Source: Puccinia triticina
Taxonomy: Eukaryota > Basidiomycota > Pucciniomycetes > Pucciniales > Pucciniaceae
Direction: 5' to 3'
DNA: 64,000 nt
NCBI RefSeq assembly: GCF_026914185.1
Contig: NC_070561.1
Location: forward strand, 1,240,001-1,304,000
The stretch's first letter is position 1, and every line of letters begins with the position of its first letter. A program made the translations under genes and the position numbers. Shown piece after piece: positions 19,110 through 58,677 of the stretch. The notes below the pieces were generated by a model, which saw nothing but the letters and a program-made list of their open reading frames with translations, did no database searches and was not told the origin of the DNA.

Positions 19110-20020
19110 ATGGTATATGTTAAGTATGCCCCGGAGGTCAAGGCAATTGCTGTCAGACTCAGCCAGGGTGGGATACAGCTCGCCGATATCAATGCAACAA
19201 TTGGCTACAATTTTTCCCCAGACTCCCTCAGCCATTGGAACAATTTATACTGCCGCAAAAGGAGTGTCTTTAGAGATCCGGCCCTCTATCTGGAGTGTGG
19301 CCACCCATTAGAATTTTCTTGTGAGGAGGCCAAGTTTTTATTGATGGAACTCGAGGCCAACACAACGCTATACTTGGATGAAATTGAAAGTCACATCCAG
19401 GCAATTACCAGCACTTACCATCCAATCAGTACCATTTTGGCAGAGTTGAGAACCTGGCTCCAACGTTGTAAACGCTGCGCTGCGCTAAAAAAAGCGGTCA
19501 TTTAGCGCAGCGCAGCGGTCACATGGCTACGTCCCAGAGGCAAGTAGCGGAAGCTGTTGAAAAAACCGCTGCGCTACTCGCTACGCGCAGCGGTTGACCG
19601 CTACCCACCCAGGGCAATTAGCGATAGCGCAGCGGAAGTGGAAATCCGCTGCGCTATCCGCTAATTTAGCGGATAGCGGAATTTAACTGCATGTTAAACC
19701 TCTTTTAACATGATTTAGACCATTTTCTTTCTTCTTTTTCAAACCACTGCGCTACTGCTGAAGCGCAGCGGTTCAGCGCTATGTGACCGCTTTTTTCAGC
19801 GCGCCAAAATTATCTTTTTTTTTCCAGGAAAACAAAAAGCGGTTAGCGCAGCGGTCTGGCCGCTGCGCGCAGCGTTTAGCGCAGCGGCACAAAAAACCGC
19901 TGCGCTAACCGCTTCGCTGCGCTAAAAGCAGCGCAGCTGTTACAACGTTGCCGGCTCCTCTTAACCAAAAAGGTGGCCCGAACCTATAACACCAATCAAG
20001 ATGAGGTGGCCCGTTTCTGA
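19110..20020 (+). pseudogene. Tc1/mariner-like transposase, truncated and interrupted
   Basis: From ATG at 19110 the frame reads MVYVKYAPEVKAIAVRLSQG, a helix-turn-helix DNA-binding start. It continues through INATIGYNFSPDSLSHW, the RDPALYLECGHP linker, the second HTH (EEAKFLLMELEANTTLYLDEI) and TYHPISTILAELRTWL. There element A is inserted. Ignoring the insert and one target copy, the frame continues directly as LLTKKVARTYNTNQDEVARF to a stop at 20018-20020. The DDE catalytic half is absent, so the copy is dead. Family recognition rests on the tandem HTH layout typical of Tc1-like transposases in rust genomes. Confidence 0.75.
19461..19950. mobile_element. element A: CAAC/GTTG termini, 7-bp TSD, AGCGC-word interior
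   Basis: 490 bp, starting CAACGTTGTAA and ending TTACAACGTTG. The flanks CTGGCTC (19454-19460) and CCGGCTC (19951-19957) agree in 6 of 7 bases. The body is almost wholly AGCGC/GCGCT words on both strands. Removing the element plus one flank copy restores the Tc1-like transposase frame, which fixes the borders independently. Confidence 0.88.
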
Positions 20021-20194
20021 TTCACTGACCACATTGACCATTTCCCTTGTATACTCTGCTCAATGACCAGCTTGTTGAAGTGTCAATCTAGCACTGCTTA
20101 ACACATTGTTGCTTATACATCCAATCATCATTGGAGGCAACATCACACCATCTCATAAGCATACATCTACTGTATTCAACTGCAACATAGCAAT

Positions 20195-20265
20195 GTGTAC
20201 TTAGCTCAATGGTTATAGCATCACTCATGAATGCTGAGTATGTGAGTTTGACTCTCACAGTACAC
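20195..20265 (+). other. tRNA-like cloverleaf, probably not a functional tRNA
   Basis: GTGTACT pairs fully with AGTACAC (7 bp). The D-arm region is TAGCTCAATGGTTATAGC, an A-box match. The anticodon stem is ACTCA/TGAGT and the T-stem GTGAG/CTCAC. The anticodon-loop position would be AAT, but the base before it is G rather than T and the variable loop is only about 2 nt. A second T-arm-like hairpin (GTGGG/CCCAC) follows at about 20272. Probably a SINE-like or pseudo-tRNA sequence. Confidence 0.45.
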
Positions 20266-20324
20266 GAGGTTGTGGGTTCAACACCCACTTCATTCGGACC
20301 TTTCGTTTCACTTGTTCAATAGCT

Positions 20325-20560
20325 TGTGCCAGTGTGAGACTCCAAAAGCGGTTTGCACCTCTTACGGCTGAATTTAGTGAAATGTGTGTGGGGAAACCCC
20401 TGCCTCTCTGAAAGACAAAGACTGACAACACCCCCAGCTAGGCTGGAAGCAAGAAGACAGTGGTCTAGTGTAGTTGAATACTTTTCTCACAAGTGGCTCA
20501 CAATGGACTGTGTATTGCAAAATACAAAGCTAGTATTTTATTATGTGGCAGAGAGTGTGA
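20325..20560 (+). repeat. LTR-like fragment
   Basis: GTGTGAGACTCCAAAAGCGG and AGTGGTCTAGTGTAGTTGAA parallel GTGTAAGACTCAAAAGCGG and GGTCTGGTCTAGTTCCAGAT at 5965-6125. It is a diverged member of the same LTR-like family. Element B is inserted at its right edge. Confidence 0.5.
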
Positions 20561-20563
20561 GGG

Positions 20564-20919
20564 CAACAAAGGGTAGTTACGCTACGCAAAACACGTAGAT
20601 AACAGTAACGTAACGGAATTTTTGTTGTTATCTACGCGTAACGGCGGTGCGATTACGTTAGCGCACCACATTAAGCCCTTTTTTTTTATGCTTGTTGCGT
20701 TATCCGGGCGCGCGGAGCCCCTGAGAGCGGGCAAAAAATGAGGCTAAAAAAGCCTTAAATGATCCGTTATTGCGTTATCCGGGGGATAACGCGATAACGG
20801 GCCTCAAAAATGAGGCCCGTTACGTTACGCGCGGGGCCTGAAATGTCCCCGTTAGTCGGGGGTAGTTACGTTACCAAAATCGCGCGGACAAGGCAACATA
20901 ACATAACTACCCTTTGTTG
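20564..20919. mobile_element. element B: CAAC/GTTG termini, perfect 7-bp TSD
   Basis: 356 bp. CAACAAAGGGTAGTTA at the left, the complement TAACTACCCTTTGTTG at the right. GTGAGGG on both sides (20557-20563, 20920-20926) is a perfect 7-bp duplication. The interior is TTACGTTACGCG-like words on both strands. No coding capacity. Confidence 0.92.
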
Positions 20920-21033
20920 GTGAGGGTGACGATTTATTTGAATCTTGTGGGGGAAGGATCTCCTGGATTCAATGGGGGAGAAAGGAAGAGAGAGCAGAGG
21001 CAAATGTGAGGCATTTGTGCTGGTAGTCTATGT

Positions 21034-21807
21034 ACATGAGGGGTTTTGGCTGGTGTGCCTTTTACAAATGAGATATCTTGGCTGGTCTGCTGTGCAGAAA
21101 ACAGCTATGTACAGTGTGGCAGTGTAGACATGAGGGAATTCAGCTGGTGACTTAGTTACAAGTGTGGCTTACACAGCCCTCTGGTTGCTATGGAGTCTTC
21201 TCAAGTGACCTGCACAGCTTTCTGTATTGCTGTGTAGTCTGCTTGAGTGACTTGCATAGCCCCATGGTTACTATGCCGCTTTATTGATGTGGCTTGTGGT
21301 TTCTAGGTTACTGTAATAAGTGGCTTGTGGTTGCTACACAGCCACATCTGAGGCTGGCTGGTTGCTATGTAGCCGCATATATACACACAGATATATGTAA
21401 AAGGGTAGTGTGTAAGCTATACATGAGGGGTTTTGGCTGGTGTGCCTTTTACAAATGAGATATCTTGGCTGGTCTGCTGTGCAGAAAACAGCTATGTACA
21501 GTGTGGCAGTGTAGACATGAGGGAATTCAGCTGGTGACTTAGTTACAAGTGTGGCTTACACAGCCCTCTGGTTGCTATGGAGTCTTCTCAAGTGACCTGC
21601 ACAGCTTTCTGTATTGCTGTGTAGTCTGCTTGAGTGACTTGCATAGCCCCATGGTTACTATGCCGCTTTATTGATGTGGCTTGTGGTTTCTAGGTTACTG
21701 TAATAAGTGGCTTGTGGTTGCTACACAGCCACATCTGAGGCTGGCTGGTTGCTATGTAGCCGCATATATACACACAGATATATGTAAAAGGGTAGTGTGT
21801 AAGCTAT
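21034..21807. repeat. identical 387-bp tandem duplication
   Basis: The block 21034-21420 is followed directly by a copy, 21421-21807, in which I could find no difference. Contents are LTR-leader-like (GAGGGGTTTTGGCTGG, TTTACAAATGAGATATCTTG) without a gene. Identity implies a very recent duplication or an assembly artefact. Confidence 0.9.
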
Positions 21808-21962
21808 AGTATTATAAATGCAGTTGTTTACAACTGTGTATGTAAACTGAAGGGGGTGTGTGTATCAAAAGAGGGTGTAATGTAACACCACACATGTAAA
21901 CTATAATTTTTTGAATTTTTCCATCTGGAACAAAAGCATCTACCACACCGGCCATTGGAACA
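21808..21962. other. short non-coding spacer
   Basis: Joins the 387-bp duplication to the R-family copy; nothing recognisable. Confidence 0.4.
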
Positions 21963-23018
21963 GTGTGGTGGCCCATTTCGTGGTCAGCTAGTCAGGTGCA
22001 CTCCTGCTGCCAGCCAGATCATCAAGATTCAAGGTTCATTCTAACTCTTCAAGGACCCTCAAGATCCCCCCCCCCCCCCCCCCCCCCAAGGCATCAAGAT
22101 CCTCAAGATTCAAGAACACTTCTACCCTTCCATCCCCTATCCTCCTGTGTTCCCCATTATTTCCCCCCCCCCCCCCCCCCTCTATTCCTTTCATGTTTCT
22201 TGGTCCTCACACAGCACTTGCTGTGGGTTTATTCATGTTTTGCGTGTGGTTTCCATTTTTGTTTTGATTTTATTCTCTCCCCTATTTTCTTCTCATGAGG
22301 TTTTGATTGGCCTCTTTCTGTCTCATCTCACTGTGTTTCCTTTTTTTTTGTTGTGTTGTGTTTTCTGCTTTTGTTTTCTTTCTCTCTGCTGTTTTGTTGT
22401 GTGCGCGCGCGTGTAGCGCGCGGAGGAGATGATGAAATTCATGTGACATGTGTCCTCCCGGAGTCCAAGTTTGCTGAACTTGGAGTATGGGAGGAGCATG
22501 GCATTCTGATCCCCAGAATATGGTCCATCCTGAGTCTATTGATCAGATCATCAGAGTTCAAAACCTTTGATCCCTTCCATCCAGATCTGCATCCATCTCC
22601 TCCTTCCCTTCTTAAGATCACCTTCCTCTTCTTTCCAAACACAAACAACCACTGGCAAGGATTCAACACCCCGGCGGACATCTCAAAGCCACCCCCACCA
22701 CCAGCTATCTGTGATCTCACCTGTGCTCATCTCTACGGACCATCACCCCAAGCAACGCTGAAACAAGTACAACACATGGATTGTATCTGGTAAACATTTT
22801 TCATTGAAGATGGACAGGAGACCTACATGTCCTGTTTTTTGTTTTCAGCCAACCTATACATAATCAGGGCTAAAAACAAAAAATAGGACTTGTAGGTCTG
22901 TATCTTCAATGAAAAAAGTTTACCAGATACTCTCCATGTATTGTACTTGTTTCAGTGTTGCCCCAAGGGCAGCCTAAACAGCAACCCATCCCCTCACACG
23001 ACTGCCACCGCTTAGCAC
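21963..23018 (-). mobile_element. R-family interspersed repeat, copy 3 (reverse)
   Basis: On the minus strand it begins GTGCTAAGCGGTGGCAG (23018) and ends with GGGCCACCACAC (about 21963). It parallels the two plus-strand copies at 41307-42073 and 42372-43136, including ATGGTCCG after the start, a CTCCAAGTT block near the centre, a GTGTGAGGACCAAGAAA-type motif and repeated ATCTTGAGG near the end. Element F interrupts it at 22753. It contains runs of C (22063-22087, 22166-22180). No protein domain; the repeat class is unknown. Confidence 0.7.
22753..22960. mobile_element. element F: fold-back with CAAC/GTTG termini, perfect 7-bp TSD
   Basis: 208 bp, starting CAACGCTGAAACAAGTACAA and ending TTGTACTTGTTTCAGTGTTG, with arms pairing nearly to the centre. 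CCCCAAG flanks both sides (22746-22752, 22961-22967). Unlike elements A-D it has no AGCG-word array, but the terminal tetranucleotide and duplication length are the same. Confidence 0.92.
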
Positions 23019-24756
23019 GGTCAGGAGTCCCTCAACGGCAGCTTTCTTCTGCCCCCAAACTTTGTTTTTGAGGGACGGTGTACCCAAACGACCAAGTTTT
23101 GGCAGGTTAAATATCCTTGGGGTGGTGCTGCAGGGGCCTAGGAGCCTGTTGGGCAATTTTTGGAATTAATATTTCAAATTTTTTTGTATCATAAGGATGA
23201 GTCCAGAAATTCTGAAATTTTTTGGAGGGGGCAAGCAAGACCCCCTCTTTTAATTTTTCCAAACAAAATGAGGAAAACCCCTCCGCTTCTTTTGGGGGAG
23301 ATCACTGTGCGCAAAGTTTTTTAGGCTTGCGCGCACAGCGGGCTCAACGTCAGGGGACAGTCAATTCTGTGCGCAAAGAGTTTTTTGCTGCTGCACAAAG
23401 TAGGTCTGAAAATATATCTTTTCCCTCTTGATGAACCTCAACATTATAGCCTGTTTGCATTTCAGATATGTATGTCTGACCAATGTCTTGTAGTCATGAA
23501 CCCTGACATTATTGGCTTACCAACTCACCAAGTGGAACTTGTCTTCTTCATGTGTGTATTTTTATTCATTACTAGAGGCCAAGGCAGCTATGCCGCTGCG
23601 GAGCCCCCATGCCCAGCTCCACGGCCAGCAGCAGCAATTATTTTTACTCAGCAGCAATATTTCTTTAGGGGGTTAATAAACATACCCGGTTTTTCCGCGC
23701 CTGTACCCCCTTTTCTGCGTACATACCCGGGTTTTTTCTACTCATTTCTATGTGACACAAATAATATCAAAATTTATCTAAAATGATGAAAATAGTTATC
23801 ATGCAATCAGAACTTCAAAAAAACTATTTTTTAATTAATTAATTATTTTTTGCATACCCCCTTTTCTGGGGTACATGTTAAGGAATACCTTTTTTGTTAC
23901 ACATCCCAGACGCACAAAAAAATCAGGGCACTTCTAATTGTAAATATTATGCATTCCCTGAAATTTTTAGGACTTTCAGGGAGTGCGTGGCGGGCTTAGT
24001 AGGAAAATTCTTGCTATCTGAATAACTTTCTTGTTACAGTTTCAAACAGTCTAAAAATTTCAGGGATTTTTAAACTCTGTATTTTATCTGTCCCCTGAAA
24101 TTTTGAGCAACAGTCTGGCAGACAGAAAAGTGGAAAAATAAAAAGTTTTTTCTATGCCACATAATTACTCATACTAGGCCTCAAGATACCACCAAATGGA
24201 CCCCAGAAATGAATTCTACGGCCAATCTCACCCCTAGTCACCACTGGAAGCACCCCTGGGCCCAGTGTGGAAGTTATACCTCATGGACACCTATCACACG
24301 GCCAGCCCCAGTAACCCAGCTGTCACCTGCCTCAACCCAATTTTCACAGTAGTACACTTATACATATCACAGGATACAAACATACATCTCCCTGTCAGGC
24401 TACACTCATAACATATTAGCTAAATACACTCCTTTATATACATAGTATGCCATCATTTACACTGTTTCTGAAGCCTCAGACTTTGTGTATACATTAATTA
24501 CCCCTGTATGATAGCTCATGCAGTCTACTGTCACCTTATGCATGTGTTAGAATGTTCTGTTGTATATTTAGACATCATATATGCACCCCTGGCATGTTTA
24601 GAATGTTTTGCTGTATATTCTGACACCATTCATGCGCCCCTGAGAGGTCATGACATCATTTGGATCTACTCCCACCAGCTAAAATCACCCTGTTGTCTAG
24701 ATTAGCTGAAAACCTAACCCACTAGCCCCTTTGGGGCTCCACTTTTGTCTATAAAA
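23019..24756. other. non-coding repeat sequence
   Basis: No gene recognised. 23660-23880 repeats CATACCCGG/ACCCCCTTTTCTG words. 23900-24130 (TTAGTAGGAAAATTC, CTTGTTACA, CTAAAAATTTCAGGGA) has a relative at 28487-28650. 24536-24650 holds two copies of a roughly 60-bp unit (TTAGAATGTT, GCACCCCTG). Confidence 0.5.
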
Positions 24757-25059
24757 CACTATGAAAAAAACTCAAGAAAGTGCTGTCAGTTGACATGCAG
24801 CATACCTGAGTTCATTCCTAGTTGAGACCAGGCCCATACAAATAAATCCCAGGGTGGTACACCCTGGAAAGTTTGGAATTCCCTCAGCTTAAGTCCATAG
24901 TGCAAAATGCACTAGGCTGAGGTACAGGAAGCTTGGTCTGAGGTGCACAGACTCAGTCCTGAGTCAAATGCTCAGCTGCCCCTGACTCATCCAAAGTCCC
25001 CCACATTGGAGGTCACGTGTACATGCTTGACCTCCCCATCCCTCCGGGTCAACAAGAGT

Positions 25060-25870
25060 AAGCACCCTTGTTGAAAAAGAGGAATCCCACCTGGTCAAAA
25101 GCTATATACAACGACTTTGACCAGGAGGAATCCCCCCCAGTCGATAACGTTACTGGGAGGAGTCCCTCCTGGTCAACTGCCATACACAGCAGTCCACCGG
25201 GAGGAGTCCCTCTTGGTCGGCTGCCATATCAAGCAGTCAACTGGGAGGAGTCCCTCCCGGTCAACTGCCATACCCAGCAGTTGACTGGGAGGAGTCCCTC
25301 CCGGTTGACTGCCATACACATCAGTCCACCGGGAGGAGTCCCTCCCGGTTGACTGCCATACACAGCAGTCGACTGGGAGGAGTCCCTCCCGGTTGACTGC
25401 TGTATATAGTTGTCGACCAGGAGGGACTCTCCCGGTTGCATACCCAGCAGTCGACTGGGAGGAGTCCCTCCCGGTCGACTGCCATACACAGCAGTCGACT
25501 GGGAGGAGTCCCTCCGGTCGACTGCCATACACAGCAGTCGACTGGGAGGAGTCCCTCCCGGTTGACTGCCATACCCAGCAGTCCACCAGGAGGAGTCCCT
25601 CCCAGTCGACTGCCATATCAAGCAGCCAACTGGGAGGAGGGGAGGAGTCCCTCCCGGTCAACTGCTGTATATAGTTGTTGACCAGGAGGGACTCTCCCGG
25701 TCGACAGGTTTATATTGTGGTCGACCGGGAGAGACTCCTCCTGGTCAACAGTCACATATATCAGTCAATCGGGAGGAGTCCCTCCGGGTCAACCCCAATA
25801 TGAACCAGCCGACCAGGAGGAGTCCCTCCTGGTTGACAGCCATATCAAGCAGTCAACCGGGAGGAGTCCC
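25060..25870. repeat. left subterminal palindromic array of the CACTA element
   Basis: About eighteen units, typically 44 bp, combining GGAGTCCCTCCCGGT with GTCGACTGCCATACACAGCA and AGTCGACTGGGA. Each unit contains two nested inverted repeats (CAGTCGACTG-type and GGGAGGAGTCCCTCC). Apparent open frames here (for example antisense 25173-25661) are products of the repeat. Confidence 0.9.
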
Positions 25871-26713
25871 TGTAAAATTTATGACAACTAAGATTGATTT
25901 CAGATCAGAAAACTTGTATCCAGAATTATATACAATGAAAATGAAATGGTCTTGTAGTCTTGACTGATTTAAGAAGTGAAAAGACTATTCACCTAAGAGC
26001 AGGCGAAATTACCGCGCTTCTGAGTTATTAAGATGAAAGAAGAAAATTAAACTGAAAAGTTGGACACAAAGTCTTTGCGAGGGAGAATGGAAAAGGGATC
26101 GGCTAGGAACAATGAGAATGGATGACTGCAATGGCGTATGCATTGCGTTAGCTTAATGCCTTGACATGTTTTATTGTTGCAAGAGGATAAGTACCTCTTG
26201 TGTTCTGCACGCTTGCTTTAACGGTGTTGAACGTCTTGACGATACGTCGAGTTAGTCCTGTTACGGCTGTTATAAGACAACATCTCTTTATCAGCGATTT
26301 GCTTTACTGCTGTTTGGATTAACGCTGCTATGCTTACTCGTTAGTCGAGGGACTTATTCGAGATGCTAGGTCTGTAGGGCTGGTGGATATTCTGTGCGAT
26401 AGTGAGCTGTGATATCAAGCGAGTGTTAGTCTGATGCTTTGTCTCAAGCCTGGGAGCTGCCTCTTAAATACTCACGAGATCAAAGATTCGGAACTCGGAG
26501 CTGCCCTGATGTTGCTACGTTGTCTGACTATGCCTTGCGCCCTTGGGGAGTTGCTGCTCGTTTCATCTGTTGTAGGGATGACGATACAGAAGGGTTAGCT
26601 TGTGTGGCTTAAGTCTGAAGGGATGAAACTCGGGGCTTACGATGCGTTGCATCAGAGTTTGTTTTTCCCCTGCGCCTTTTGGCGTCTAAAGCATCAGCCT
26701 CTGTATTCTGACA
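25871..26713. mobile_element. solo LTR with perfect 5-bp TSD
   Basis: Starts TGTAAAATTTATGACAAC and ends CTGTATTCTGACA, with GTCCC on both sides (25866-25870, 26714-26718). 843 bp, no coding sequence. TG...CA ends with a 5-bp duplication define a solo LTR left by recombination of a retrotransposon inserted into the CACTA array. Confidence 0.9.
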
Positions 26714-27860
26714 GTCCCTACCGGTTGACAGCCATATTGAGCAGTTGACCGGGAGGAGTCCCTCCCGGTCGACTGCTGTATATAGTTGTCGACCAGGAGG
26801 GACTTTCCTGGTCAACAGGTTTATATTGTGGTCGACCAGGAGGGACTCCTCCCAATCAACTGATATATATGACTGTTGACCGGGAGGAGTCCCTCCCGGT
26901 CGACCACAATATAAACCTGTCGAAGTCCCTCCCGGTTGACAGGTTTATATTGTGGTCAACCGGGAGGGACTCCTCCCGGTCAACAGGTTCATATTATGGT
27001 TGACCAGGAGGGACTCCTCCCGGTCAACAGTCACATATATCAGTCAATTGGGAGGGACTCCTCCCGTTCAACTGCTAGGAGTCCCTCCTGGTTGACTGCC
27101 ATATCAAGCAGTCGGCTGGGAGGAGGGGAGGAGTCCCTCCCGGTTGGCTGCCATACACTGCAGTCGACTGGGAGGAGTCCCTCCCGGTCAACTGCTGCAT
27201 ATAGTTGTCGGCCAGGAGGGACTCCTCCCGGTCAACAGTCACATATATCAGCTGATTGGGAGGGACTCCTCCCGGTCAACTGCTTGATATGGCTGTTGAC
27301 CGGGAGGGACTCCTCCCGGTCGGCTGGTTCATATTGGGGTCAACCGGGAGGGACTCCTCCCAATTGACTGATATATGTGACTGTCAACAAAGAGGAGTCT
27401 CTCCCGGTCAACCACAATATAAACCTGTCGACCGGGAGAGTCCCTCCCTGTCAACAGCTATATACAGCAGTCGACCGAGAGGGACTCCTCCCGGTCGACA
27501 GGTTGTATTGTGTTGATGACCGGGAGGGCTTCCTCCCGGTTGACAAGGTTGTGTTTGTTGTGTTGTTGACCAGGAGGGCTTCCTCCCACTTGACATGTGT
27601 GTTGATGACCTGGTGGGCTTCCTCCCGGTCGACACTGTTGTGTTTGTTGTGTTGTCGACCAGGAGGGCTTCCTCCCACTCGACATGTGTGTTGATGGCCT
27701 GGAGGGCTTCCTCCCGGTCAACACTGTTGTGTTTGTTGTGTTGTTGACCGGGAGGGATTGACGCGCGTGAAGGTATGCCCTTGTTGACCAGGGGGGATTC
27801 CTCCTAGTCAACACCGGCGCGTATTCTTGCCGACATAGGGGGCATTCTTCCCAGGGGGCC
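26714..27860. repeat. right subterminal palindromic array of the CACTA element
   Basis: The same unit family as the left array but mostly in the other orientation (CCGGGAGGGACTCCTCCCGG, TTGACAGGTTTATATTGTGG). From about 27500 a derived unit with GGGCTTCCTCCC and TTGTGTTTGTTGTGTTG appears, showing progressive divergence towards the right end. Confidence 0.88.
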
Positions 27861-28109
27861 GTTGACAAGCCAGTATGGATTTGTATGGATGACCAGTCAG
27901 CACCAGTACTGTGCAGGTGTTGATGTGTATGGCTCAGGACACACTTAGCACATGCAAATACTGTGCTAAGTCCAAAGCTGAGCTACAGATCTTCTTTTGA
28001 TGCTGAGCTAACCTGTGATTAAACTTGGAATGACCATGGATGTACTTGAAGTTTCAACCTGGAATGCACATGTCAACTGACAGCACTTTCTCAAGTTTTT
28101 TTCATAGTG

Positions 28110-29190: not shown

Positions 29191-29234
29191 CCTGTCGGCC
29201 ATCCGAACAGCCGGAATAGTTTTCTTGTTTCGAC

Positions 29235-36739: not shown

Positions 36740-38200
36740 TTACGGCATCCCTTCCGATGACCGGTCAATACCAGTCATCACCTGGAATGCATACCTCCAT
36801 CTGATGGCTGGTCGACACAGGTCATTGGGTCAAGTACACGCTCAACTCTTCCCCAACACTGGTGATTGGACACACGCACACACCCCACTCAATGACCAAC
36901 CCAGTCATTGAGTGGATACACACTCCACTTGATGACCAACCCAGTCATCAAGTGCACACACTCCACTCAATGACCTAGCCAGTCATCAAGTGGATAACTA
37001 CTTGACTTGATGGCCGGACTCAACACTGGGTCGCTACGCTACGCTAAGCTATTTCAGCGCTACGCGTGAGCGTAGCGGCAAAAAGCGCCCATCTATTTTG
37101 CATAGCGTTAGCGCGCTGTTAGCGCCGCTACGCTGCGCTAATTTTCAGCGGCGCTAACAGCGCGCCAATTCTTTGTTAGCGTTAGCGCGCCGCTACAGTC
37201 GCTACGCTACGCTGCGCTGCGCTACAGCGCTTTTAGCGGAAAAAAAGCCCTTTTTTCCCGCTAAAGGCGCTGTAGCGCAGCGTAGCGCGCGCTCTTTTGC
37301 GCTCTGCATGTGTAGCGTTAGCGCAATTGCGCGCATCTGCGCTAACGCTACGCTATCAGCTAAAATAGCTGCGCACCGCGTGCGCGTAGCGTTAGCGCAT
37401 ATGCGTGCAATTGCGCTAACGCTACGCTAAAAAATAGCGCATTTTCGCTGTGCTACGCTACGCTAACCGCTATGGTTAGCGTAGCGACCCAGTGTTGCCG
37501 GACTGGTTCATTGAGTGGGTACACACTCCACTCAATGACCTGATTGGGTCATCCATACCAACTCAATGGCCGGACCAGGTCATTGAGTGGACACATAAAC
37601 TTCACTTAATTGCCGGACCGGGTGATCAAGTGGATACAACTCCACTCAATGACCAACCCAGTCATCAAGTACACACACTCCACTCAATGACCAACCCGGT
37701 CATCAAGTGGATAACTACTCCTCTCTATTACCGGGTTTGTCATCAAGTGGATAACTACTCCACTTGATGAGGGTTGGTCATTGTGTGGGCTACCCACTCC
37801 ACTCGATGAACCAAACAGGACATCAAGTGGAGTGAATATCCACCTGATGACCGGATCAGCCATCAAGTGGATAACTACTTCACTCAATTGACCCGGTCCA
37901 GCCATCAAGTGGAATGTGTATCCACTCAATGACCAGGTTGGTCATTGAGTGGAGTGTGTATCCACTCAATGACTGGGTTGGTCATTGAGTGGAGTGTGTA
38001 TCCACTCAATGACTGGGTTGGTTATTGAGTGGAGTGTGTATCCACTCAATGACTGGGTTGGTCATTGAGTGGAGTAGTTATCCACTCAATGACCAACCCG
38101 ATCATTGAGTGGGGTGTGTGCACTCAATGACTGGGTTGGTCATCAAGTGGAGTGTGTATCCACTTGATGACTCTGTCCCCCCATCAAGTGGAGTGTATGC
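36740..38200. repeat. palindromic tandem array CACTCAATGACC type
   Basis: Units of about 40 bp, strictly 40 bp between 37921 and 38080, of the form TCCACTCAATGACTGGGTTG followed by GTCATTGAGTGGAGTGTGTA. Each unit is an inverted repeat (CCACTCAATGAC/GTCATTGAGTGG). Both strands' forms alternate, and element C interrupts the array at 37021-37497. It is probably the subterminal region of a DNA transposon whose ends I could not find. Confidence 0.85.
37021..37497. mobile_element. element C: CAAC/GTTG termini, perfect 7-bp TSD
   Basis: 477 bp. CAACACTGGGTCGCTACGCT at the left is mirrored by AGCGTAGCGACCCAGTGTTG at the right (20-bp ends). CCGGACT flanks both sides (37014-37020, 37498-37504). The interior is GCGCTA/TAGCGC words on both strands. 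The open frame 37173-37430 is a by-product of the repeat. Confidence 0.94.
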
Positions 38201-43136: not shown

Positions 43137-43787
43137 GGCAACGGCAGTTTTGATGAATGATTTCATGACGGTAATCCAAGCGGCAACCAGAAAATCTCAG
43201 CAGAAGTCTAGTCCAACCGTTGAAGATCACTATACCCCGATGGACCTGGATGCTATCAATGCTGTACGCACAAATGCCGGTAGATATGCCCCGCCAAACC
43301 GTTGATTTCCTCAGCAAACCCCACAACACAGTTGCCAGCCAGGCCCCCAGCAAAATGGATTACCAACGTCTCAACCAAAACCTCAACTGTTGGTCGAGAA
43401 AGCGACGGCTTTCCGCGGTGTTCCACTCAATAGCAATCTCACGGGCAAATGGGGGATCCAATGCCACTACTGCAAGCAGAACGGGCATTGGTACAACAAC
43501 TGCCGCTTGTTTTGGGAAGATGTTGCGTCTGGTGAAATTGGGCCTCCTCCCAATGGACACAATGCCCCAGGTTCAAACTATTTACCTCCGGATCACAATT
43601 TTGGCAAACACAACCGCTTGCGCCAATTGGACGTCCCAGAGGTTAGCAACGGCAAAATCTTGTTAGACTCGGGAGCCTCGACCCACGTGAGTGGCTCACT
43701 TGACTTGTACATATCACGTGAAGAGCTCGCCATACCTAGGCGAATCCTACTTGCAGTAGCTGACTGCTCAGTTGATGTCAGATTCAA

Positions 43788-43839
43788 GGGGATGATCTCC
43801 ATCCCGACGTCAAGGGGATGATCTCCATCCCGACGTCAA
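43788..43839 (+). repeat. 26-bp tandem duplication shifting the copia frame
   Basis: GGGGATGATCTCCATCCCGA and the next six bases occur twice in a row, 26 bp apart. Twenty-six is not a multiple of three, so protease and integrase fall into different frames; both frames read the same MISIPTS. Confidence 0.92.
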
Positions 43840-46064
43840 AGGGAACGGTGACGATTGAAGACGTGTACTACTGCCCTGGTGTCAACGGTATCATCCTCTC
43901 AGTTGGTCGTCTAACGGCAGTAGGATGGAAATTTAATTGTCAAGCTAGATCCGCAACGTTAACTAGTCCAGAAAATGTTACCTTCAACACATTGTATAGG
44001 AATTTCTGCTGGTTTTTGTCACACCTAAACCAATCATTGAAATTGAATAAATTCACTCAGTGTCCAACATTTTATCCTTTTTTATGGCATTGGAGATTGG
44101 GACATGTTTCCGAGGAGGTGGTTTGGAAATACCTCAAGGATCACTACCCAGATGAAGTACAAGACAAAAAGTGGGAGTCATTCTTCTGTACTCAATGTGC
44201 CAAATCAAAAAGTATTGACAAGAAATCCCTGGGCGGCAACTCCTTAATCCCGCGCAACAAACCGCTGGACCTGCTTGTCTCCAATGTGGCTGGACCTTTT
44301 CCCCACAACATGTCTGGAAAACGGTACGTGTTAACCATGAGGGACCATGCTTTGACATACATCTGGTGCAACGTGATGACGGAGAGAAGTGAAGTCCTGG
44401 CCAAAATCATGTCTTGGCTTGATCACATCAAGAACTCGTTTGGCCGTTTTCCCAAATATATCTGCTGCGACAATGCACCTGAATACACGGCATTGTTGAA
44501 GAAACTCCTGATCCCAATTGGAGTAAGATTGGCACCTGTACCTCCGTATAGTCCCGAACAAAACGGAGAAGTGGAGAGAGTCAACCGCACCCTCGGCAAT
44601 ATGGCAAGGACAATGCTGCATAAATTGAAGATGCCTCAACCATGTTGGAGCTATGCATATCAACTTGCTGCGCACATCCACAACCGGATCCCAAACAAGA
44701 AGGTCGACTCTTGTCCAGTTACCGCGCTGTACAGAATCCCAACAGACCCCAACAATCTATACCCTTTTGGTGCGCAAGCAATCGTGCATGTGCCTAAAGA
44801 GAAACAAGATAATCTGTCTCAACAAGCAATTGAGGGACAACTTATTGGGTATCCGGCTTCAGGAGCTGGTTGGCTCATACACTCAAATCACGACGGACGG
44901 ATTCTCCACTTGACATCGGTTATATTCCCGGAATTTCAGAACCTACCTGTAAAAAAGAAAGAGCCGAAGAAAGGAGACCTAGATTTGATCCTAAATCAGA
45001 TTGTGTTGAAACTTGGCAAAGAAGAAACGGAAGTAAACGCTAAAGCTGAACAAGAAGCAATGTTGAATCTTCCGGTGACTCAGGACAGGCAGCTACCCAA
45101 TACCATCAGAGCAGCGCTAGCAAATCCAGAGGCAACCAAGTGGATTCAAGCAGCAAACTACGAGATCGACAAATTTTTCGAACTCGATGCGTGGGACGTT
45201 GTAGAACTGTTTGGTGGTGTGAAACCTTTGGGTTGTCAATGGGTATTTGTCATCAAACCAGGCAAGAGAGAGGGTGACCCAGAGATCTTCCACGCTTGGT
45301 ACATCGCGAAAGGTTTTAACCAGGTGATGGGCCAAGATTGTAATGAGACATATGCGCCCACAGCTTCCCTAGTCACGCTACGCATGCTAATATCCCTGGC
45401 GATGAAGTATCATTACCCGATGGCAACTTTCGACGTCAGCTTGGCATATCTCTATAGCCCGATCAATGAAGAAGTGTACATCCAACCTCCTGTGGAAGTC
45501 CGTCCAGACCTCAAAGGGAAGATTTCAAAACTCAAGAAGGCCATGTACTGTACGCGGCAAGCGGCGCGATGCTGGTGGCTGCTCTTCAAGAGTAAAATGG
45601 AAGCCCTGGGATTCACAGTTTTGGAACTCGAGCAATCTCTTTACACGTATCGCAGAGGTGAAGATTTCATCATCATTTGGCTACATGTTGATGACGGCCT
45701 GGTAGTAGCATCTCGTGACGGGTTGATGACGGAGTTGAAGGATGCAATCACCAGAGAACTGAAGATCAAATGGTCCAACAAGATCTCCGGTCTAGTGGGA
45801 TTGAACATCAAGATTTCCGGTCGTGTTGTTGAATTAGATCAAGAGAAACTAGCACAACAAATCGTCAACGACTATCCGCGCACAATTTTCACTCAGCGTA
45901 GTACCCTTCCAGATGCAAATCTCAAGATAAATGCAGGAGAACCAGTAGACCAAACCCAGTACAGGTCTATCATTGGATCTCTAATGTACCTGGCAGCAGG
46001 GACTCGGCCAGATCTATCTTATGGCGTCAATCTGCTAGCTCGGTATTTGCAAGCCCCGTCATAA
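43818..46064 (+). pseudogene. copia integrase-reverse transcriptase
   Basis: A 748-codon open stretch. GAG-pre-integrase zinc site (HWRLGH ... CTQCAKSK, about residues 90-136), integrase core (LDLLVSNVAGPFP, CCDNAPEY, SPEQNGEVERVNRTL), then reverse transcriptase: GCQWVFVIKPG, ARW-type AWYIAKGFNQ, ETYAPTASLVTLRML, ATFDVSLAYLYS, and the catalytic HVDD (IIWLHVDDGLVVAS, about residue 620). It ends LMYLAAGTRPDLSYGVNLLA with a TAA at 46062-46064, after which NHWKALDFLVGYV continues in frame, so the stop is a point lesion. The catalytic Asp pair is intact. It cannot be expressed as a polyprotein because of the upstream frameshift. Confidence 0.9.
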
Positions 46065-47455: not shown

Positions 47456-47477
47456 GGTTTGCAATCTTGGGGGGGGA

Positions 47478-52400: not shown

Positions 52401-53346
52401 CAAACCCAAACTTACAAGACGAATGTAGACTTTTCATGTGGTGTGACTTCCGCCTCTGGATTCATCGCACTCGGATCGGATACGGGAATGATTAGATTAT
52501 TCGACCCTAACATTGGCAAGAAAGCTAAGACTTTACTGCCTGAAGTGAGGGATGCAATCAAGCATCTTGATGTCACTAACAACGGAAGATATCTCGTCGC
52601 TACTTGTGAAAAGTATTTGCTACTCTATGATTGCCAAATGAAGAGCGGTAAATTGGGATTCGAAAAAAGCTTTCCGAAGGCTGAGAAACCCGCAGGGATA
52701 AGAATCGAGCTTACCCCGGAACATCGAGGGCGGATTATTCACGAGAAGATTCCATACTGTTTCAATCAAGCAAAGTAGGTAGTTTGTTTTTCCGGCAAAT
52801 CACAAGCTTGCATATTCACTCTTTTCTTATGGCCATTGCGCAATACGATTTAATCTAGGTTCAATCAAGGCGATGGAGAAGTAGAAAGGAAGATTATTAC
52901 CGCAATGGGTCCTTATATCATTGAATTCGATCTGAAGTCGATCTTGGATAAGAGCAGAAGGACTCAATATGTCCTCAAAAGGTATCAGGAACGCGTCGTT
53001 GCCGATAACTTCCGGTGGGGCGATGCTAAAGAAATTGTCAGTGATTCTCTTTCCGACCATCATCATTTCCAGTGTCCATTGAATTGTTCAAGGAACTTGA
53101 AGCTAACGAACCAATTATTATTTTATTTCATCTTCGAAAAACTTATTGCTGGCCGGTTGAAAAATGAATGCTGCATATTTACAATAGGTTGTTACTCTTG
53201 AAAGTGATGTGCTCATGGAGAAACACAATAGATTGTTGAAGCCGAGTCGACAATCTATCGTCGGACTGGAGCCTATCCAGCCATCATCTAGTCGAATCCG
53301 AACCGGCGGTTCTACCTTGGGCATTGTTCAAGAATGGGAGGGTTGA
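49425..53346 (+). CDS. VID27: VID27 family protein, full-length paralogue
   Basis: Exons after the first: 49546-49648, 49735-49853, 49934-50157, 50244-50311, 50407-51304, 51390-51681, 51761-51932, 51995-52064, 52158-52774, 52859-53036, 53188-53346. With a tentative 7-nt first exon (49425-49431) the phases close to 968 aa. N-terminal part: ISLPAGRLNLIRPKH, ECIFLEAGLIIRRT, FHYQVVITR. A long acidic/serine-rich middle (residues about 180-400), a PH-like stretch (AWESICNLYLFKAD, GNILFHYKYG), acidic EEEVEDSEEEE, then the conserved C-terminal beta-propeller-like domain: KIVEEWELNDDPLTDF, TLIGTSRNEFFKIDPR, SGFIALGSDTGMIRLFD, GRYLVATCEKYLLLYD, VVADNFRWGD. VID27 is named from yeast vacuolar import and degradation; its molecular role is poorly known. 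Intron 2 fits only as GC-AG. The start codon is the weakest point. Confidence 0.88.
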
Positions 53347-55030
53347 TGAATCAAGGAGCTTTGTTCTTTGGGGCTCGGTCCTTCACATCATCAGATCGAA
53401 TATACCTTGTTCTCTCCTCCACTTTGCCCTTTATTCATCTGGTTTTCCTCAAAACGCTTTGGATAATGTAATTTTACTTGTCACCCTCTGGTCAAACAAC
53501 CAAAAAAAAAAAAAACATGAATACTCCAATATCCTCTTCCTCCTTCTTTGCTTCCATTTTCTCTTGAATTTTTCAGTTATTAATGTACCTATCTACGTAC
53601 TTCAACATACACGAGGGCTGTTCAGTTTCTCATACGGGCTTGACTTTTCAGTACCATATCAATATCTTGTTTTCTCTATTTGTTTCCACCTTTGCTAACA
53701 GTTATGACCATCATCATCCATTATCAGTATCATGAAATCCTACATCTGTACGCGCCTTGGATATCAATTACATATGTAGTTAACCAATCATCCAAAATAT
53801 CTTACATTGTGCTCAACGATTTATCCTTTCCCTTCTCTCCTCTGGCTTTTCTTTTTGGATGGCCCATACTCTCGTGTTTGCTACCAACATTGCAAGTTGA
53901 AAACCCGTTCTACTCATTCTTTGCTTTGTGTGCTTGGTCACCCCGGCCTTTAGTTACACCTAGGCCTTCTTCCTATACATTCATTTGATGGCCGGAAAGC
54001 TCAATGTTCACGAGGTAGCTCGGGATGCCGTAGTACATATTCATGTCGCTAGTGCGACATCTCTTTATGTTTCTGGCAAGCAAGACGCGTCGAAGTGACT
54101 CTATGGCAAAGGATACAGCTATCTTGTACCCGGTCACTTCTGCGTTGAGAAACGTCGCACATAAATCAATAACTCAAGAAATTTGAGGCTAGTCACCGCT
54201 TTATTTCAACCTGGTCTTCCAGGGCAAAGCTCAATACAAGCAGGTGGTAAGATTGATACTGTAACAAAGTGCTAAGTTCCTCAGAGCTTTAAAAGAAGCA
54301 CCATTATTTCGACCAACATTGATGCCAACTCGTGCGTTGGTCAGCCGGCGTCCTCTACCCTAATTTCCAATTTTCCTCAAGTTATCACTTGTTACATAAG
54401 GGAATGAGATGCTATACATGTAAATAGTCTCGGCAGACTTATCTGGCTACATTCTCCCACAAAGTTTCGGCCAGCATCCAATGCGCCAACTGGAGTGGAC
54501 CTCAGGAGTCAGCGCCGTGTGGTTTTTGATGGGGCTCGCAATAGCCATATCGAGCTTGTCTCTCGATTGGTCGCGCTTCGCGCCACCGGGCGTCGTGCTT
54601 TCGGGATTGTATAGAAAAGCCAACCCTCAGACGGCTATCGTAGTCTATCGTACGTAGTACGAAGATTCTGACCTGTTCTGACGCGCCCTACAGATCCTTT
54701 GACCTTTGAATTCATTTATTTATGTAAATAATACGTTTATTTACCTTTGTTGTCTATTGGTCCCATCACCCAAATAAAGAAGTGTATTGCCTTAGTGATA
54801 GATCTCAGGAGAGGCTGATTCTGGAGTCCTTAGCCCATCTACCGTTCATGCTATTGGAGAGTCAGGTCGGAGCCTTTACTTTTCTGCAAGATATCGTTAG
54901 CCTTCGCGTTTGTTTCATCGGCCAGCCAACACCTAGATATTCAGAATCTGGTTTCCACTCTTCCCACCAGTCGGCCAGTCCTGAATTCATTGTCACACCA
55001 ATCCCTCCCATCATCAATACGCTGGTTCCA
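53347..55030. other. intergenic between VID27 paralogues
   Basis: 53347-54000 is pyrimidine-rich (3' UTR of the first gene and beyond). No domain-bearing frame. The second gene's promoter should lie towards the right end. Confidence 0.5.
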
Positions 55031-55038
55031 TATAAATA
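55031..55038 (+). promoter_or_regulatory. TATA box of VID27 paralogue 2
   Basis: TATAAATA lies 28 bases before the ATG at 55066, so the 5' UTR would be very short. The ATG context CCACCATGG is a strong Kozak match, which supports this start. Confidence 0.5.
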
Positions 55039-55065
55039 ACCTCTTGTTCCATTTTGATCTCCACC

Positions 55066-57244
55066 ATGGGCACTTTCGGACTAAGACCATCCGACTGCAG
55101 CTCACCCTCTGAAGTTGACAACGAAAGCAATCAGCCTGATGTGCAAAATCTCTTGGTAGAAAAGGATAACCAGATCACCCAACTACTCAACAGGATCCAA
55201 CAGCTTGAGATCGAAAAAAACAAAACTGGAGACGCGCGCTATTTTTCTTCGGACAATGACCCTGCAACTTCCTTGGCAGCAGCAACCAATCAAGCTCTAA
55301 CCTCTTTAAATCAAACCAATCAACTCCAGATTTCACCAGCCGGTCACTCTGAAAGCTCCTTATCTAGATTACATCAGTCTGGAGTGGACTTCGAGAATAA
55401 CCATGGAAATTCCGTAGCCAACCCGTCGACAATCAGAACGTCTTCGACTAGAAATTCTTTAATCGCGACCATTTCTCGACCTTCCTTGAGCGGAACAAAT
55501 CACGCGTCCATCGAATACCGATCAGAAACCACCTTGACTAGTTGGAGCTGTGTGACGCGTAGTGAGATGATTCCAGAAAAGTATGGAGAGGAATCTAACA
55601 GCCGTTTTCCTCTCATTGAAGAAGTCGAAGAAACTGGGCAAGGAGGTATGAAATTTCCATTTCAATCGATTTCTCCGATACATAAACGACATGCTTTTCT
55701 AAATCTTCAACTATCATTTCTCCTTGCCAGACTCCACAAGTGACGATGATGAGGATTATGAGCCTGCAGTGCAGAGCTTCGGGTCCAGGCGAGGCGAGCC
55801 CGCCAACGATCACTATGCGATGGGATATAGAGGCGTATCGTGTGTTGTTGGAGGAAATACTGTCAAAACGTTTGACGATGAGGCCAGTGGTAGTGGAAAA
55901 TTAAAGTAAATGCGCTTTGTTACTGTAGTATTAATTTCGAAAACACGATCTTACTGAGCTTGTCTCTTCCCCTCACTCCTCAGATTATTGGCCACGATGC
56001 CTGGCCTGTCTACCCCTGATGGAAAGCGATCTCTGGTCCCATCCAAGGTCATGGTCAGTAATGATAGTTATCAGAGACCAGCTGAATGCTGATTGGATGG
56101 ACAAGTGCTGACTCACTGATTGACCGTTGAATCGGCTATTCTTTTTGAATATATAGTTGCATAGACAAGACAGCAACTTGATCATGCAAGATAAGTATAG
56201 CCGAGACTTGCTGTACAGCTTTGACATGGAGTATGGTAAAGTGGTCGATGAATGGCATATCGGTCCTGAACAACTCGTGGACTTCTGTCCGGGTAAAAAA
56301 TTCAATCAGATGCTCGCGGAGCCGACCTTCGTAGGGGCCTCGTCAAACTCGCTTTATATAATCGATCCACGATTGCATGGCTACAAGGGAGTTGCATTGA
56401 AAACGTACAGTCCCTTTACCAGGACCAACTTCTCCTGTGTTGCGACTACCGAATATGGATGGGTGGCGGTCGGATCCAAAAATGGAGACATCCGATTGTA
56501 TGACTCGTTGGGCAAGAATGCTAAAACTCACCTTCGTGGTTGTAAGGGCCCAGTTTTGGCGCTCGATGTTTCTAAGGACGGGGCGTATTTGGTCGCTACT
56601 TACGAAGCTCACTTGGTGCTCTACGACTGCCACATGGGCTTTAATAGAAGCATTGCTAGTTCTGCGAATGCTTCCGGTATCCGGGTCAATCTTACCCGAG
56701 AACATGCGAAGTATCTCCATGATGAGGGTGTTCCGCTCGTCTACAAATCAGCGACGTGAGTGCGTCTCTATCCCCTTGAGCAGATTTGTTCTCTTCATCC
56801 AGCTGATCTCATTGTTTCTTCTTAATGATGATGATAATGATGATGTTCTATTCAGGTTCAACTTAGGACCAAATACGACAGAGAAATACATCACCGCCTA
56901 TGTCGGCCCTTATTTGATCGCATTCAACTTGCGCTCGATACTGGCCAACAAGCCCGAATATGAGATCAAGAGATATCAGGATAACGTAGTTGCCAGTAGT
57001 TTTCGATGGAATAATGATAAAGATATTGTCAGTCTTTATTTTAGGGTGGCTACAAGAATCACGCATTATTCTTCTTCTGACTGTTTCTTTTGGCATTTCC
57101 ATGATGATTCTACGTTGTCTCTAGGTTGTCACGGTGCCAAGTGACGTGTTCGTCCAGGATCGAGCCAAGTTATCTCGACCCCGCCGCCATTCGCTAGATC
57201 ATTACCGATCAAGGAACATTATAAGAGGTAGACCTTCTGTTTAA
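55066..57244 (+). CDS. VID27-like protein with divergent N-terminus, paralogue 2
   Basis: Exons 55066-55645, 55731-55905, 55984-56053, 56157-56755, 56856-57027, 57125-57244; the phases close to 571 aa. The N-terminal 190 residues are unlike the first paralogue: a short coiled-coil (VEKDNQITQLLNRIQQLEIE) then a Ser/Thr-rich segment. From exon 2 on it follows paralogue 1: DSTSDDDEDYEPAVQSF, LLATMPGLSTPDGKRSLVPS, GKVVDEWHIGPEQLVDF, TFVGASSNSLYIIDPR, GWVAVGSKNGDIRLYD, GAYLVATYEAHLVLYD, NVVASSFRWNNDKDI. Intron positions and phases match paralogue 1 from the acidic exon onwards, so it arose by tandem duplication, with loss or replacement of the N-terminal and PH-like parts. Function unknown. Confidence 0.9.
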
Positions 57245-57583
57245 GGTAGCTTGCAACAACGTCTGGTTTGTACTGGGGAAAAATCTTTTCAGCTGGTCAC
57301 TGGCCGGCTTGAGTCTTGTTCTGTTGTCTTTTCTGTCCAGTTATCTTCTAGTTTGATCTTATCAAATTGCCGGGTAAATTTAATACTCATGTAGTTGAGA
57401 ATGATTTAAATATTGGAAGACTTACTGTAGGATCTACGCCCCCCGTACAGACTAAAATTTCACAGATCTAAACCTTACTGGCTGGTGAAAAGTGATTGAG
57501 ATTAAGTTCTCACCAGCCAGTAAGGTTTAACCTGGCCTGACAGATCTGGCTTTTTAGCCCACGGGAAGTCATCCATTGACAAT
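57245..57583. other. 3' flank of VID27 paralogue 2 with a hairpin
   Basis: Contains an inverted repeat at 57469-57529, TAAACCTTACTGGCTGGTGA and its complement around a loop of about 22 nt. This may be a small MITE or a transcriptional hairpin; no duplication was seen at its edges. Confidence 0.55.
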
Positions 57584-57745
57584 AGCCCGGTTCACGTTGG
57601 GGTTTGACTAGCAAGAGTTTAATTACAAACATGCGTGTTTAATGTCAGCTCTTGCTGAAAGTCAGACTCCCACGGCCATTTTTCAGCTTTTTAAGCTTAC
57701 TTTTTGATTGATCAGCAACACCAATTTTAGTTGGCGGCATAAAAT

Positions 57746-58677
57746 CAACGTTGTAACAGCTAAGCTTCGAAAAGCTCAGCGCAGCGGTTTTGTGCACCGC
57801 TGCGCTGCGCTGAAGGATAGCGCTCAAACCGCTACCGCTTCCCCTATTCAAATTCCCTAAGAAAAAATTTGTATTTTAGCGAGCTAAAAATAGCGGCCAC
57901 GTAGCGGCAAACCGCTAAAATCAGCGGTAGCGCAGCGCTTTTCCGCTGATTTTAGCGGTAGCGCAGCGGTCGAAAGGTTCATTTTTGTTTTCATCTCCTG
58001 AGGCAACAGTAGCTGTAGTGTTGTTGTTCTTTGGAACACGGGGCCGTCTAGTGGCAGGAGCAGGAGTTTCAGGCACCAGCGAACGACGAGAATCGCCGTG
58101 GGTCGATATGAATCCTGGCCGAGTGAGTGGGGTACGAAGACGAGTAGACTCCCGGCGTTCCGATTGAGGCGGAATGTTTCCATTTCCAGTATCAGGGGGG
58201 GTAGATGGTTGATTGCTGTCGGAGTCTGGGACTGGGTCCGCACGTATACCAGAATTTAGATGCCAAACCATGATAAGAACGGCGGAGAACGGCGGAGACG
58301 GATTCTGGTGACCACGTATTGATCAAGCTCAAGGGCAACCGGTGAGTTGTACATACATCTAGGCTGCAGTGGGCCGCAAGTGCGCAGCTTTTGGCGGCCG
58401 GCGCAGAGTTTAGCGGTGTGTGCAGCCTTTAGCGGCCAGGAAGCGCTCACGTAGCGGTATTTGCGCTGCGCTGCGCTATCTTGCAGCTTTAGCGCCTAAA
58501 TTTCTGCTGCGCTAACGCTGAGGCCTCTGAAAGAAAATCAGCTCACCGCTAAATTTAGCGTTAGCGGAAGCGGTTTCTGGACAGCTTCTGCTAAATGCCG
58601 TGGGGGTGTAGCGGTGTGACCGCTGCGCTGCGCTAAATGACCGCTTTTTTTAGCGTAGCGCAGCTGTTACAACGTTG
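57746..58677. mobile_element. element D: CAAC/GTTG termini, perfect 7-bp TSD, with coding remnant
   Basis: 932 bp, starting CAACGTTGTAACAGCT and ending AGCTGTTACAACGTTG. ATAAAAT flanks both sides (57739-57745, 58678-58684). The outer parts are AGCGC/GCGCT words like element A, with which it shares the terminal 11 bases. The centre (about 57975-58380) is ordinary, non-repetitive sequence holding a minus-strand frame, so D looks like an internal-deletion derivative of a larger element. Confidence 0.93.
57921..58271 (-). pseudogene. coding remnant inside element D
   Basis: A frame starting MVWHLNSGIRADPVPDSDSN, then Pro/Ser/Thr/Arg-rich residues (RRESTRLRTPLTRPG, RRSLVPETPAPATRRPRVPK), running into the AGCG-word region. 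The composition resembles the disordered N-terminus of many fungal transposases, but no domain is present. Any link to the mobilising enzyme is inference. Confidence 0.35.

What the first reader, a model, noticed from the sequence alone, without database searches (positions are those of the whole stretch)
19461..58677. Family of short elements with CAAC...GTTG termini and 7-bp target duplications
Five insertions (A 19461-19950, B 20564-20919, F 22753-22960, C 37021-37497, D 57746-58677) share terminal CAAC/GTTG. Their flanks are GTGAGGG, CCCCAAG, CCGGACT and ATAAAAT (perfect) and CTGGCTC/CCGGCTC (6/7). Five independent cases with the same length in 64 kb exclude chance. A strict 7-bp duplication does not fit hAT (8), CACTA/Harbinger (3), Tc1 (TA) or LTR (5); P- or Dada-like groups are possible but show no sequence tie here. 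No transposase is present, so the mobilising enzyme is unknown and may define an undescribed superfamily or subgroup.
Basis: partly seen in the sequence, partly recalled or inferred. Interest (0 to 1): 0.88.

Follow-up and report, generated by a model that had tools for sequence, protein, structure and literature searches.

The report
Miniature hAT7 transposons in leaf rust
Five short pieces of "jumping DNA" in the wheat leaf rust genome are stripped-down passengers of a recently described transposon lineage (hAT7) that duplicates seven bases where it lands, rather than members of an unknown class.

Summary
In detail: all five elements have CAAC...GTTG ends; B, C, D and F have perfect 7-bp duplications, A 6/7. 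Genome-wide, 69 of 83 copies scored have a perfect 7-bp duplication.

The novelty does not hold. Copies of about 4 kb with A/D ends and perfect 7-bp duplications encode a hAT transposase. F-like ends (15-16/20) bound a 4.3-kb hAT element. B/C-like ends (15-17/20) lie beside an open hAT frame and bound elements with a hAT remnant. These transposases form one clade apart from 29 other hAT sequences of the genome. hAT elements with 7-bp duplications were described from Puccinia, including P. triticina, in December 2025 as "hAT7" (PMC12730594). The window is P. triticina. D keeps 116 codons of the hAT element's first frame.

So these are non-autonomous hAT7 derivatives: direct for A and D, by TIR similarity for B, C and F. 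Extra: the 7-bp target favours nTnSnAn, like hAT's nTnnnnAn minus one central base.

The parts
19461..19950 (.). Element A, 490-bp hAT7 MITE (A/D family); TIRs 19461-19483 and 19928-19950
   Evidence: 40 scored copies, 39 of them over the whole length
19454..19460 (.). Left 7-bp duplication of A (CTGGCTC; 6/7)
19951..19957 (.). Right 7-bp duplication of A (CCGGCTC; 6/7)
20564..20919 (.). Element B, 356-bp hAT7-type MITE (B/C-type TIR)
   Evidence: 40 scored copies; 339 B-type ends at up to 1 mismatch, reversed control 0
20557..20563 (.). Left duplication of B (GTGAGGG)
20920..20926 (.). Right duplication of B (GTGAGGG)
22753..22960 (.). Element F, 208-bp foldback hAT7-type MITE, nearly palindromic
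   Evidence: 40 scored copies
22746..22752 (.). Left duplication of F (CCCCAAG)
22961..22967 (.). Right duplication of F (CCCCAAG)
37021..37497 (.). Element C, 477-bp hAT7-type MITE (B/C-type TIR)
   Evidence: 40 scored copies; 497 C-type ends at up to 1 mismatch, reversed control 0
37014..37020 (.). Left duplication of C (CCGGACT)
37498..37504 (.). Right duplication of C (CCGGACT)
57746..58677 (.). Element D, 932-bp internal-deletion derivative of a ~4-kb hAT7 element
   Evidence: 98.9% over 702 bp and 90% over 249 bp to the two ends of the 4024-bp copy L069
57739..57745 (.). Left duplication of D (ATAAAAT)
58678..58684 (.). Right duplication of D (ATAAAAT)
57975..58322 (-). Remnant of the first open frame of the hAT7 element inside D (116 aa, 97% identical to the frame L069:556-1134)
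   Evidence: tblastn

Best explanation
A, B, C, D and F are non-autonomous (MITE-like) derivatives of hAT7 transposons in Puccinia triticina. Shown: the ends, the 7-bp duplications, hAT transposase in full-length A/D copies and in relatives with similar ends for F, B and C, and D as an internal deletion of a full-length element. Inferred: transposase made by full-length hAT7 copies binds the TIRs (and possibly the subterminal GCGCTACGC-type repeats) in trans, excises the element and joins it to a target cut with a 7-bp stagger, which repair turns into the 7-bp duplication. As sampled there are three TIR subgroups: CAACGTTGTAAC (A, D), CAACRSTGAAACAA (F) and CAACAMWGGGTM (B, C). Each has a hAT-coding relative. 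The clade seems to keep the hAT target contacts (T at position 2, A at the mirror position) with one central base fewer.
For: (1) Copies L069-L072 of 4024, 3973, 3980 and 4082 bp carry A/D ends and perfect 7-bp duplications. C-terminal frames of L069 and L070 match PF05699 Dimer_Tnp_hAT at 45.3 and 42.7 bits, cut-off 21.4; L071 and L072 match an L069 transposase exon at 72% and 70%. A scan for TIR/TSD pairs around the transposase found only the outer ends and weak pairs in the subterminal repeats. (2) D is 98.9% (702 bp) and 90% (249 bp) identical to the two ends of L069 and holds 116 codons of its first frame. (3) L133:994-5281 is a 4288-bp element with identical 20-bp TIRs and a perfect duplication GTTGAAG and PF05699 at 50.7 bits; F ends match its TIR at 15-16/20. 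(4) An open 271-aa hAT frame in L138 (PF05699, 55.8 bits) ends 256 bp from a terminus matching B at 16/20 and C at 17/20; nested 871-872-bp elements in L139 and L134 have perfect duplications, B/C-like ends (15-17/20) and a hAT remnant. With CAAC kept and the rest shuffled, the observed best match was reached in 0-21 of 20,000 trials per end. (6) 69 of 83 copies have perfect 7-bp duplications. (7) Target preference over 62 insertions: T at position 2 in 39 (p 4.5e-10), A at 6 in 32 (p 8.6e-5), C or G at 4 in 47 (p 1.1e-5), compared with nTnnnnAn for Hermes. (8) hAT7 with 7-bp TSDs is reported from P. triticina and other Puccinia species.
Against: Movement was not shown; no empty site in another isolate was available. 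Of the long B pairs, frames of L129 and L130 gave no hAT domain; L131 and L132 were not scanned. The lists of B, C and F ends were capped at 100 rows. Two apparent links proved false: the hAT genes in L133 and L134 lie in nested elements, not in the C and F copies themselves. One A copy has an 8-bp duplication and two copies (L112, L124) have unmatched flanks. The target preference is uneven: D has T at position 2 in only 3/9 (T or C 9/9), and C has A or G at position 6 in only 5/10. The published hAT7 sequences (Data S1, Figure 1) could not be read, so identity with named families is untested.
Confidence: 0.93

Rival explanations
1. An undescribed DDE superfamily with a 7-bp stagger mobilises these elements.
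For: 7-bp duplications are uncommon (recalled); no complete transposase was seen in the window copies.
Against: Full-length A/D copies encode a hAT transposase; hAT7 is published.
Confidence: 0.02
2. A, D and F are hAT7, but B and/or C are moved by a different enzyme that converged on CAAC ends and 7 bp.
For: No full-length copy with the exact B or C TIR was found (lists capped at 100 rows, one B variant, whole list of 49); the L133 lead for C proved to be a nested element.
Against: B and C TIRs match the hAT-bearing L138 end and the L134/L139 nested elements at 15-17 of 20; same 7-bp duplication; T or C at target position 2 in 13/16 B and 9/10 C, though A or G at position 6 in 14/16 B but only 5/10 C.
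Confidence: 0.04
3. Kyakuja (KDZ) elements, which also make 7-bp duplications and have CA..TG ends in Laccaria.
For: 7-bp TSD and CA..TG termini are reported for Kyakuja (PMC12730594, passage).
Against: Kyakuja has no TIRs; here outer 20-bp TIRs are 18-20/20 and the transposases match hAT.
Confidence: 0.01

Closest known systems
hAT7 transposons of Pucciniales (Kojima 2025, PMC12730594)
   Same: hAT transposase, 7-bp duplications, Puccinia including P. triticina
   Different: The sections and passages I read describe transposase- and TET-bearing families; the window elements are short non-autonomous derivatives. Termini of the published families were not visible to me (figures and supplement not held).
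Hermes and other canonical hAT elements
   Same: C-terminal dimerisation domain (PF05699; L138 matches the Hermes chains at E 1.6e-5), short TIRs, T/A contacts in the target
   Different: Hermes duplicates 8 bp with nTnnnnAn; here 7 bp with nTnSnAn
Ac/Ds-type internal-deletion derivatives and MITEs (recalled)
   Same: Short and TIR-bearing; D keeps both ends of its parent and part of its gene; A, B, C and F are in many copies
   Different: Trans-mobilisation was not tested here

Membership tests
hAT superfamily | Transposase with hAT C-terminal dimerisation domain in elements with the same ends | tested here: met
   A/D family direct: PF05699 above cut-off in L069 and L070. For F, B and C only in relatives with similar TIRs
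hAT superfamily | RNase-H-like catalytic core | tested here: inconclusive
   PF14372 below cut-off: 22.2 bits (L133) and 19.9 bits (L138), cut-off 27
hAT superfamily | 8-bp duplication (canonical) | tested here: not met
   7 bp in 69 of 83 copies, 8 bp in 1; hAT groups with 5, 6 and 7 bp are published
hAT superfamily | Target pattern nTnnnnAn | tested here: inconclusive
   A one-base-shorter version, nTnSnAn, is present
hAT7 subgroup | 7-bp duplications | tested here: met
hAT7 subgroup | hAT transposase from a Pucciniales genome, one clade | tested here: met
   P. triticina contig; clade of 10 tips, support 1.0, 75 columns of the dimerisation region
hAT7 subgroup | Falls in the published hAT7 clade with the reference sequences | not testable with these tools
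   Reference sequences are in a supplement; look-ups in supplements are capped at 0
MITE | Short, TIRs, many copies, no complete transposase gene | tested here: met
   208-932 bp; 40 scored copies each for A, B, C and F. D has one other match over its whole length and is better called a deletion derivative
Kyakuja (KDZ) | 7-bp TSD, CA..TG ends, no TIRs | tested here: not met
   TIRs present; hAT domain
P element / Dada | P- or Dada-type transposase in long copies | tested here: not met
   Pfam scans of frames of long copies gave hAT domains and no P-element match; I had no separate test for Dada

The most novel reading that the evidence does not exclude
The hAT7 clade shortened the hAT strand-transfer stagger from 8 to 7 bp by losing one central base pair of the target while keeping the flanking T/A contacts, and all CAAC-ended subgroups inherited this from one ancestor. 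This makes it a natural case for what sets duplication length in hAT transposases.
Probability: 0.5. Interest if true: 0.45.

Novelty: new member of a known kind. Interest (0 to 1): 0.3.

Why it matters
It removes a proposed new transposon superfamily and assigns hundreds of small repeats in the leaf rust genome (339 B-type, 497 C-type and 213 F-type ends) to hAT7 or its close kin. CAAC...GTTG ends plus 7-bp duplications give a simple rule for annotating unclassified rust repeats. The palindromic nTnSnAn target offers a concrete question about how hAT enzymes set stagger length.

Tried and rejected
Undescribed superfamily: rejected, because long A/D copies encode hAT. Kyakuja: rejected, TIRs present.

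Leads that failed. The 9663-bp C pair (L133) seemed to be the autonomous C element, but its hAT gene is in a nested 4288-bp element (F-like TIR) inside a long direct-repeat pair (probably LTRs) inside a C copy. The hAT remnant in the long F copy L134 lies in a nested B/C-like element. Long B pairs: L129 holds nested copia and L130 gave no domain; L131 and L132 were not scanned. A B end near a hAT gene on C2 was only a short B copy about 3 kb away. A second B end near a PF05699 match on C14 could not be fetched. L074, a 7876-bp A/D-type pair, holds frames that look like copia (by eye). A window frame (VID27-like by recall) gave no hits, probably because of the length filter. The 30 PF05699 loci with 1.5-kb flanks carried no TIR match with fewer than 5 mismatches. 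I did not test whether those other hAT genes make 8-bp duplications.

Rows left out. P0013 (its C-terminus does not align) and one duplicate; the other hAT tips come from the top 30 of 150 scored PF05699 matches; 14 of 76 insertions without a perfect duplication at the assumed ends; 5 of 20 D-type copies with an end not located (L078, L083, L084, L085, L087); L083 and L087 have perfect 7-bp duplications in the scan. L086 was fetched and not counted.

Copies fetched for the count, of 39 non-window copies listed in each case: A the top 20; B 20 (one with a trimmed end skipped); C 10 (one skipped); F 10 (three with a trimmed end skipped) plus 3 long pairs.

Full report
What was claimed.

Observation. 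The sequence shows all five as described. Four duplications are perfect and A has one C/T difference. The combination of CAAC/GTTG ends, at least 15/20 inverted identity and a perfect 7-bp flank occurs four times in the window and never in 40 mononucleotide shuffles; of the other 255 four-base termini, TCCC gives seven pairs and three others give one each.

Where this is. The window is C4:1240001-1304000 of a 122.8-Mb, 18-contig assembly. C4 has 8,485,360 bases, the same as the contig listed for protein PtA15_4A129 of Puccinia triticina, and a window frame is 100% identical to PTTG_06143 of that species over 99% of its length. The genome is therefore wheat leaf rust; chromosome 4A is read from the protein name.

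Copies and duplications. DNA searches scored 40 copies each for A, B, C and F, out of 505, 285, 971 and 155 first-look candidates. Of 88 copies examined for duplications, both ends were located in 83: perfect 7-bp duplications in A 19/21, B 16/21, C 10/12, D 13/15 and F 11/14, in all 69/83, with 8 more at 6/7. Perfect matches at 5, 6, 8, 9 and 10 bp number 1, 0, 1, 1 and 0. The 5- and 9-bp cases are one copy in a GT repeat (L025); the 8-bp case is one A copy (L024), which is unexplained. L112 (C) and L124 (F) have no matching flanks and L121 (F) has two mismatches. L073 and L088 (D) were counted as misses because the script placed the right end wrongly; one search finds them perfect and 6/7. 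The sample is from the top of the lists and so favours intact copies.

The enzyme, A/D family. A search with D found split matches about 4 kb apart. The fetched copies L069-L072 have A/D ends and perfect 7-bp duplications, at 4024, 3973, 3980 and 4082 bp. Open frames of L069 and L070 include a C-terminal hAT dimerisation domain, 45.3 and 42.7 bits, cut-off 21.4; L071 and L072 match an L069 transposase exon at 72% and 70%. A scan for alternative TIR/TSD pairs around the transposase found only the outer ends, shifted registers of them, and weak pairs in subterminal repeats. D matches L069 at 98.9% over 702 bp and 90% over 249 bp at the two ends, with about 3 kb missing between, and keeps 116 codons of the first open frame at 97% identity. 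D is thus a deletion derivative. A shares 84.5-86% identity over 110 bp at one end with L069-L072 and 66.5-71% over about 210 bp at the other.

The enzyme, F. The first apparent link, a hAT remnant in the long F copy L134, was false: the remnant lies in a nested element (L134:2161-3032, perfect duplication GTGCTAC, B/C-like TIR). A better relative lies in L133: 994-5281 is 4288 bp with identical 20-bp TIRs CAACGGTGAAACAATTACGT and a perfect duplication GTTGAAG, and has a hAT dimerisation domain at 50.7 bits. F ends match this TIR at 15-16 of 20.

The enzyme, B and C. I first took L133 (9663 bp between C ends, flanks 6/7) for the autonomous C element; it is a C copy holding a long direct-repeat pair (probably LTRs), which holds the hAT element just described. 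That lead was withdrawn. B and C TIRs match each other at 20/24. They match, at 16 and 17 of 20, a terminus (L138:675) 256 bp beyond an open 271-aa hAT frame (PF05699 at 55.8 bits), and at 15-17 of 20 the ends of the nested elements in L134 and L139, which carry a hAT C-terminal remnant and perfect duplications. The remnant matches L069 at 33% over 66 residues. The far end of the L138 element was not read. When each window TIR was shuffled after CAAC, the best match to the nine hAT ends was equalled in 0-21 of 20,000 shuffles.

One clade. In a tree of the dimerisation region (75 columns), the A/D, F-like and B/C-like transposases and five Puccinia database proteins form a clade of 10 tips, separate from 29 other hAT tips of this genome, support 1.0. 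P0013 and one duplicate were removed, and the other tips are from the top 30 of 150 scored PF05699 matches. This domain is short and the branch is long. Hermes chains are matched by L138 at E 1.6e-5.

Literature. Kojima 2025 (PMC12730594; I read the abstract, section 3.1, the legends and found passages) describes hAT families with 7-bp duplications in six Puccinia species including P. triticina, plus P. striiformis and Melampsora larici-populina, named hAT7. In its main text 'MITE' does not occur and 'non-autonomous' occurs once. A search for hAT7 with Puccinia and transposon found only this paper. Searches for Puccinia with MITE and TSD or TIR terms listed 7 and 5 papers; judging by titles and abstract starts, and by passages of PMC12210899, I saw none that describes these families. 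The library holds open-licence papers only.

Mechanism. Shown: structure, duplications, enzyme type in long copies and relatives. Inferred: excision and insertion in trans by hAT7 transposase with a 7-bp stagger. The target is palindromic: C at position 1 (29/62, p 1.4e-5), T at 2 (39/62, p 4.5e-10), C or G at 4 (47/62, p 1.1e-5), A at 6 (32/62, p 8.6e-5), against local background, uncorrected for 27 positions; flank positions reach p 0.014 at best (62 insertions, 14 dropped). By family, T at position 2 is A 15/18, B 9/16, C 6/10, D 3/9, F 6/9, and A at position 6 is 8/18, 8/16, 4/10, 4/9, 8/9. Hermes prefers nTnnnnAn in 8 bp (PMC10368747, passage). The 7-bp pattern looks like the same contacts with one central base fewer. 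That is my inference.

Verdict. A real and coherent set, belonging to a known kind. The elements are non-autonomous hAT7 derivatives; the case for a new superfamily is refuted for A and D and very unlikely for B, C and F.

Noticed in passing
window 58970-59712: 743-bp foldback element with long TIRs (CGGACTTACTTCGCGC...), repeats of TTCGCGCACTG and a perfect 8-bp duplication AATCCAAA, about 300 bp from D: a different TIR family with 8 bp.
   Followed up: no
window 21024-21795: Tandem duplication with a 387-bp period, 98% identical.
   Followed up: no
window 25160-27480: Dense array of short inverted and direct motifs (TCCCGGTCAACTG / GGAGTCCC) that produces many false TIR/TSD pairs.
   Followed up: no
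window 36900-38100: C is inserted in an array of GTCATTGAGTGG-like repeats.
   Followed up: no
window 43776-46064: 762-aa open frame that looks like a copia-type polyprotein (by eye).
   Followed up: no
window 22060-22185: Two poly-C runs of about 20 bases.
   Followed up: no
window 20195-20290: tRNA-like A and B box motifs by eye, possibly a SINE; ARAGORN reports no tRNA there and only tRNA-Ala at 62746-62818.
   Followed up: partly
L024 (G000:C4:2024359-2025448): One A copy with an 8-bp instead of 7-bp duplication, CAAAAACC, in an A-rich site.
   Followed up: no
L133: Triple nesting: hAT7 element (994-5281) inside a long direct-repeat pair inside a C MITE.
   Followed up: partly
L074: 7876-bp A/D-type pair with perfect 7-bp duplication enclosing frames that look copia-like by eye, probably a retrotransposon inside a MITE.
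   Followed up: no
window 15141-16253: Frame of a DUF7729 (PF24855) protein, 100% identical to P. triticina PTTG_06143; it served to identify the species.
   Followed up: yes
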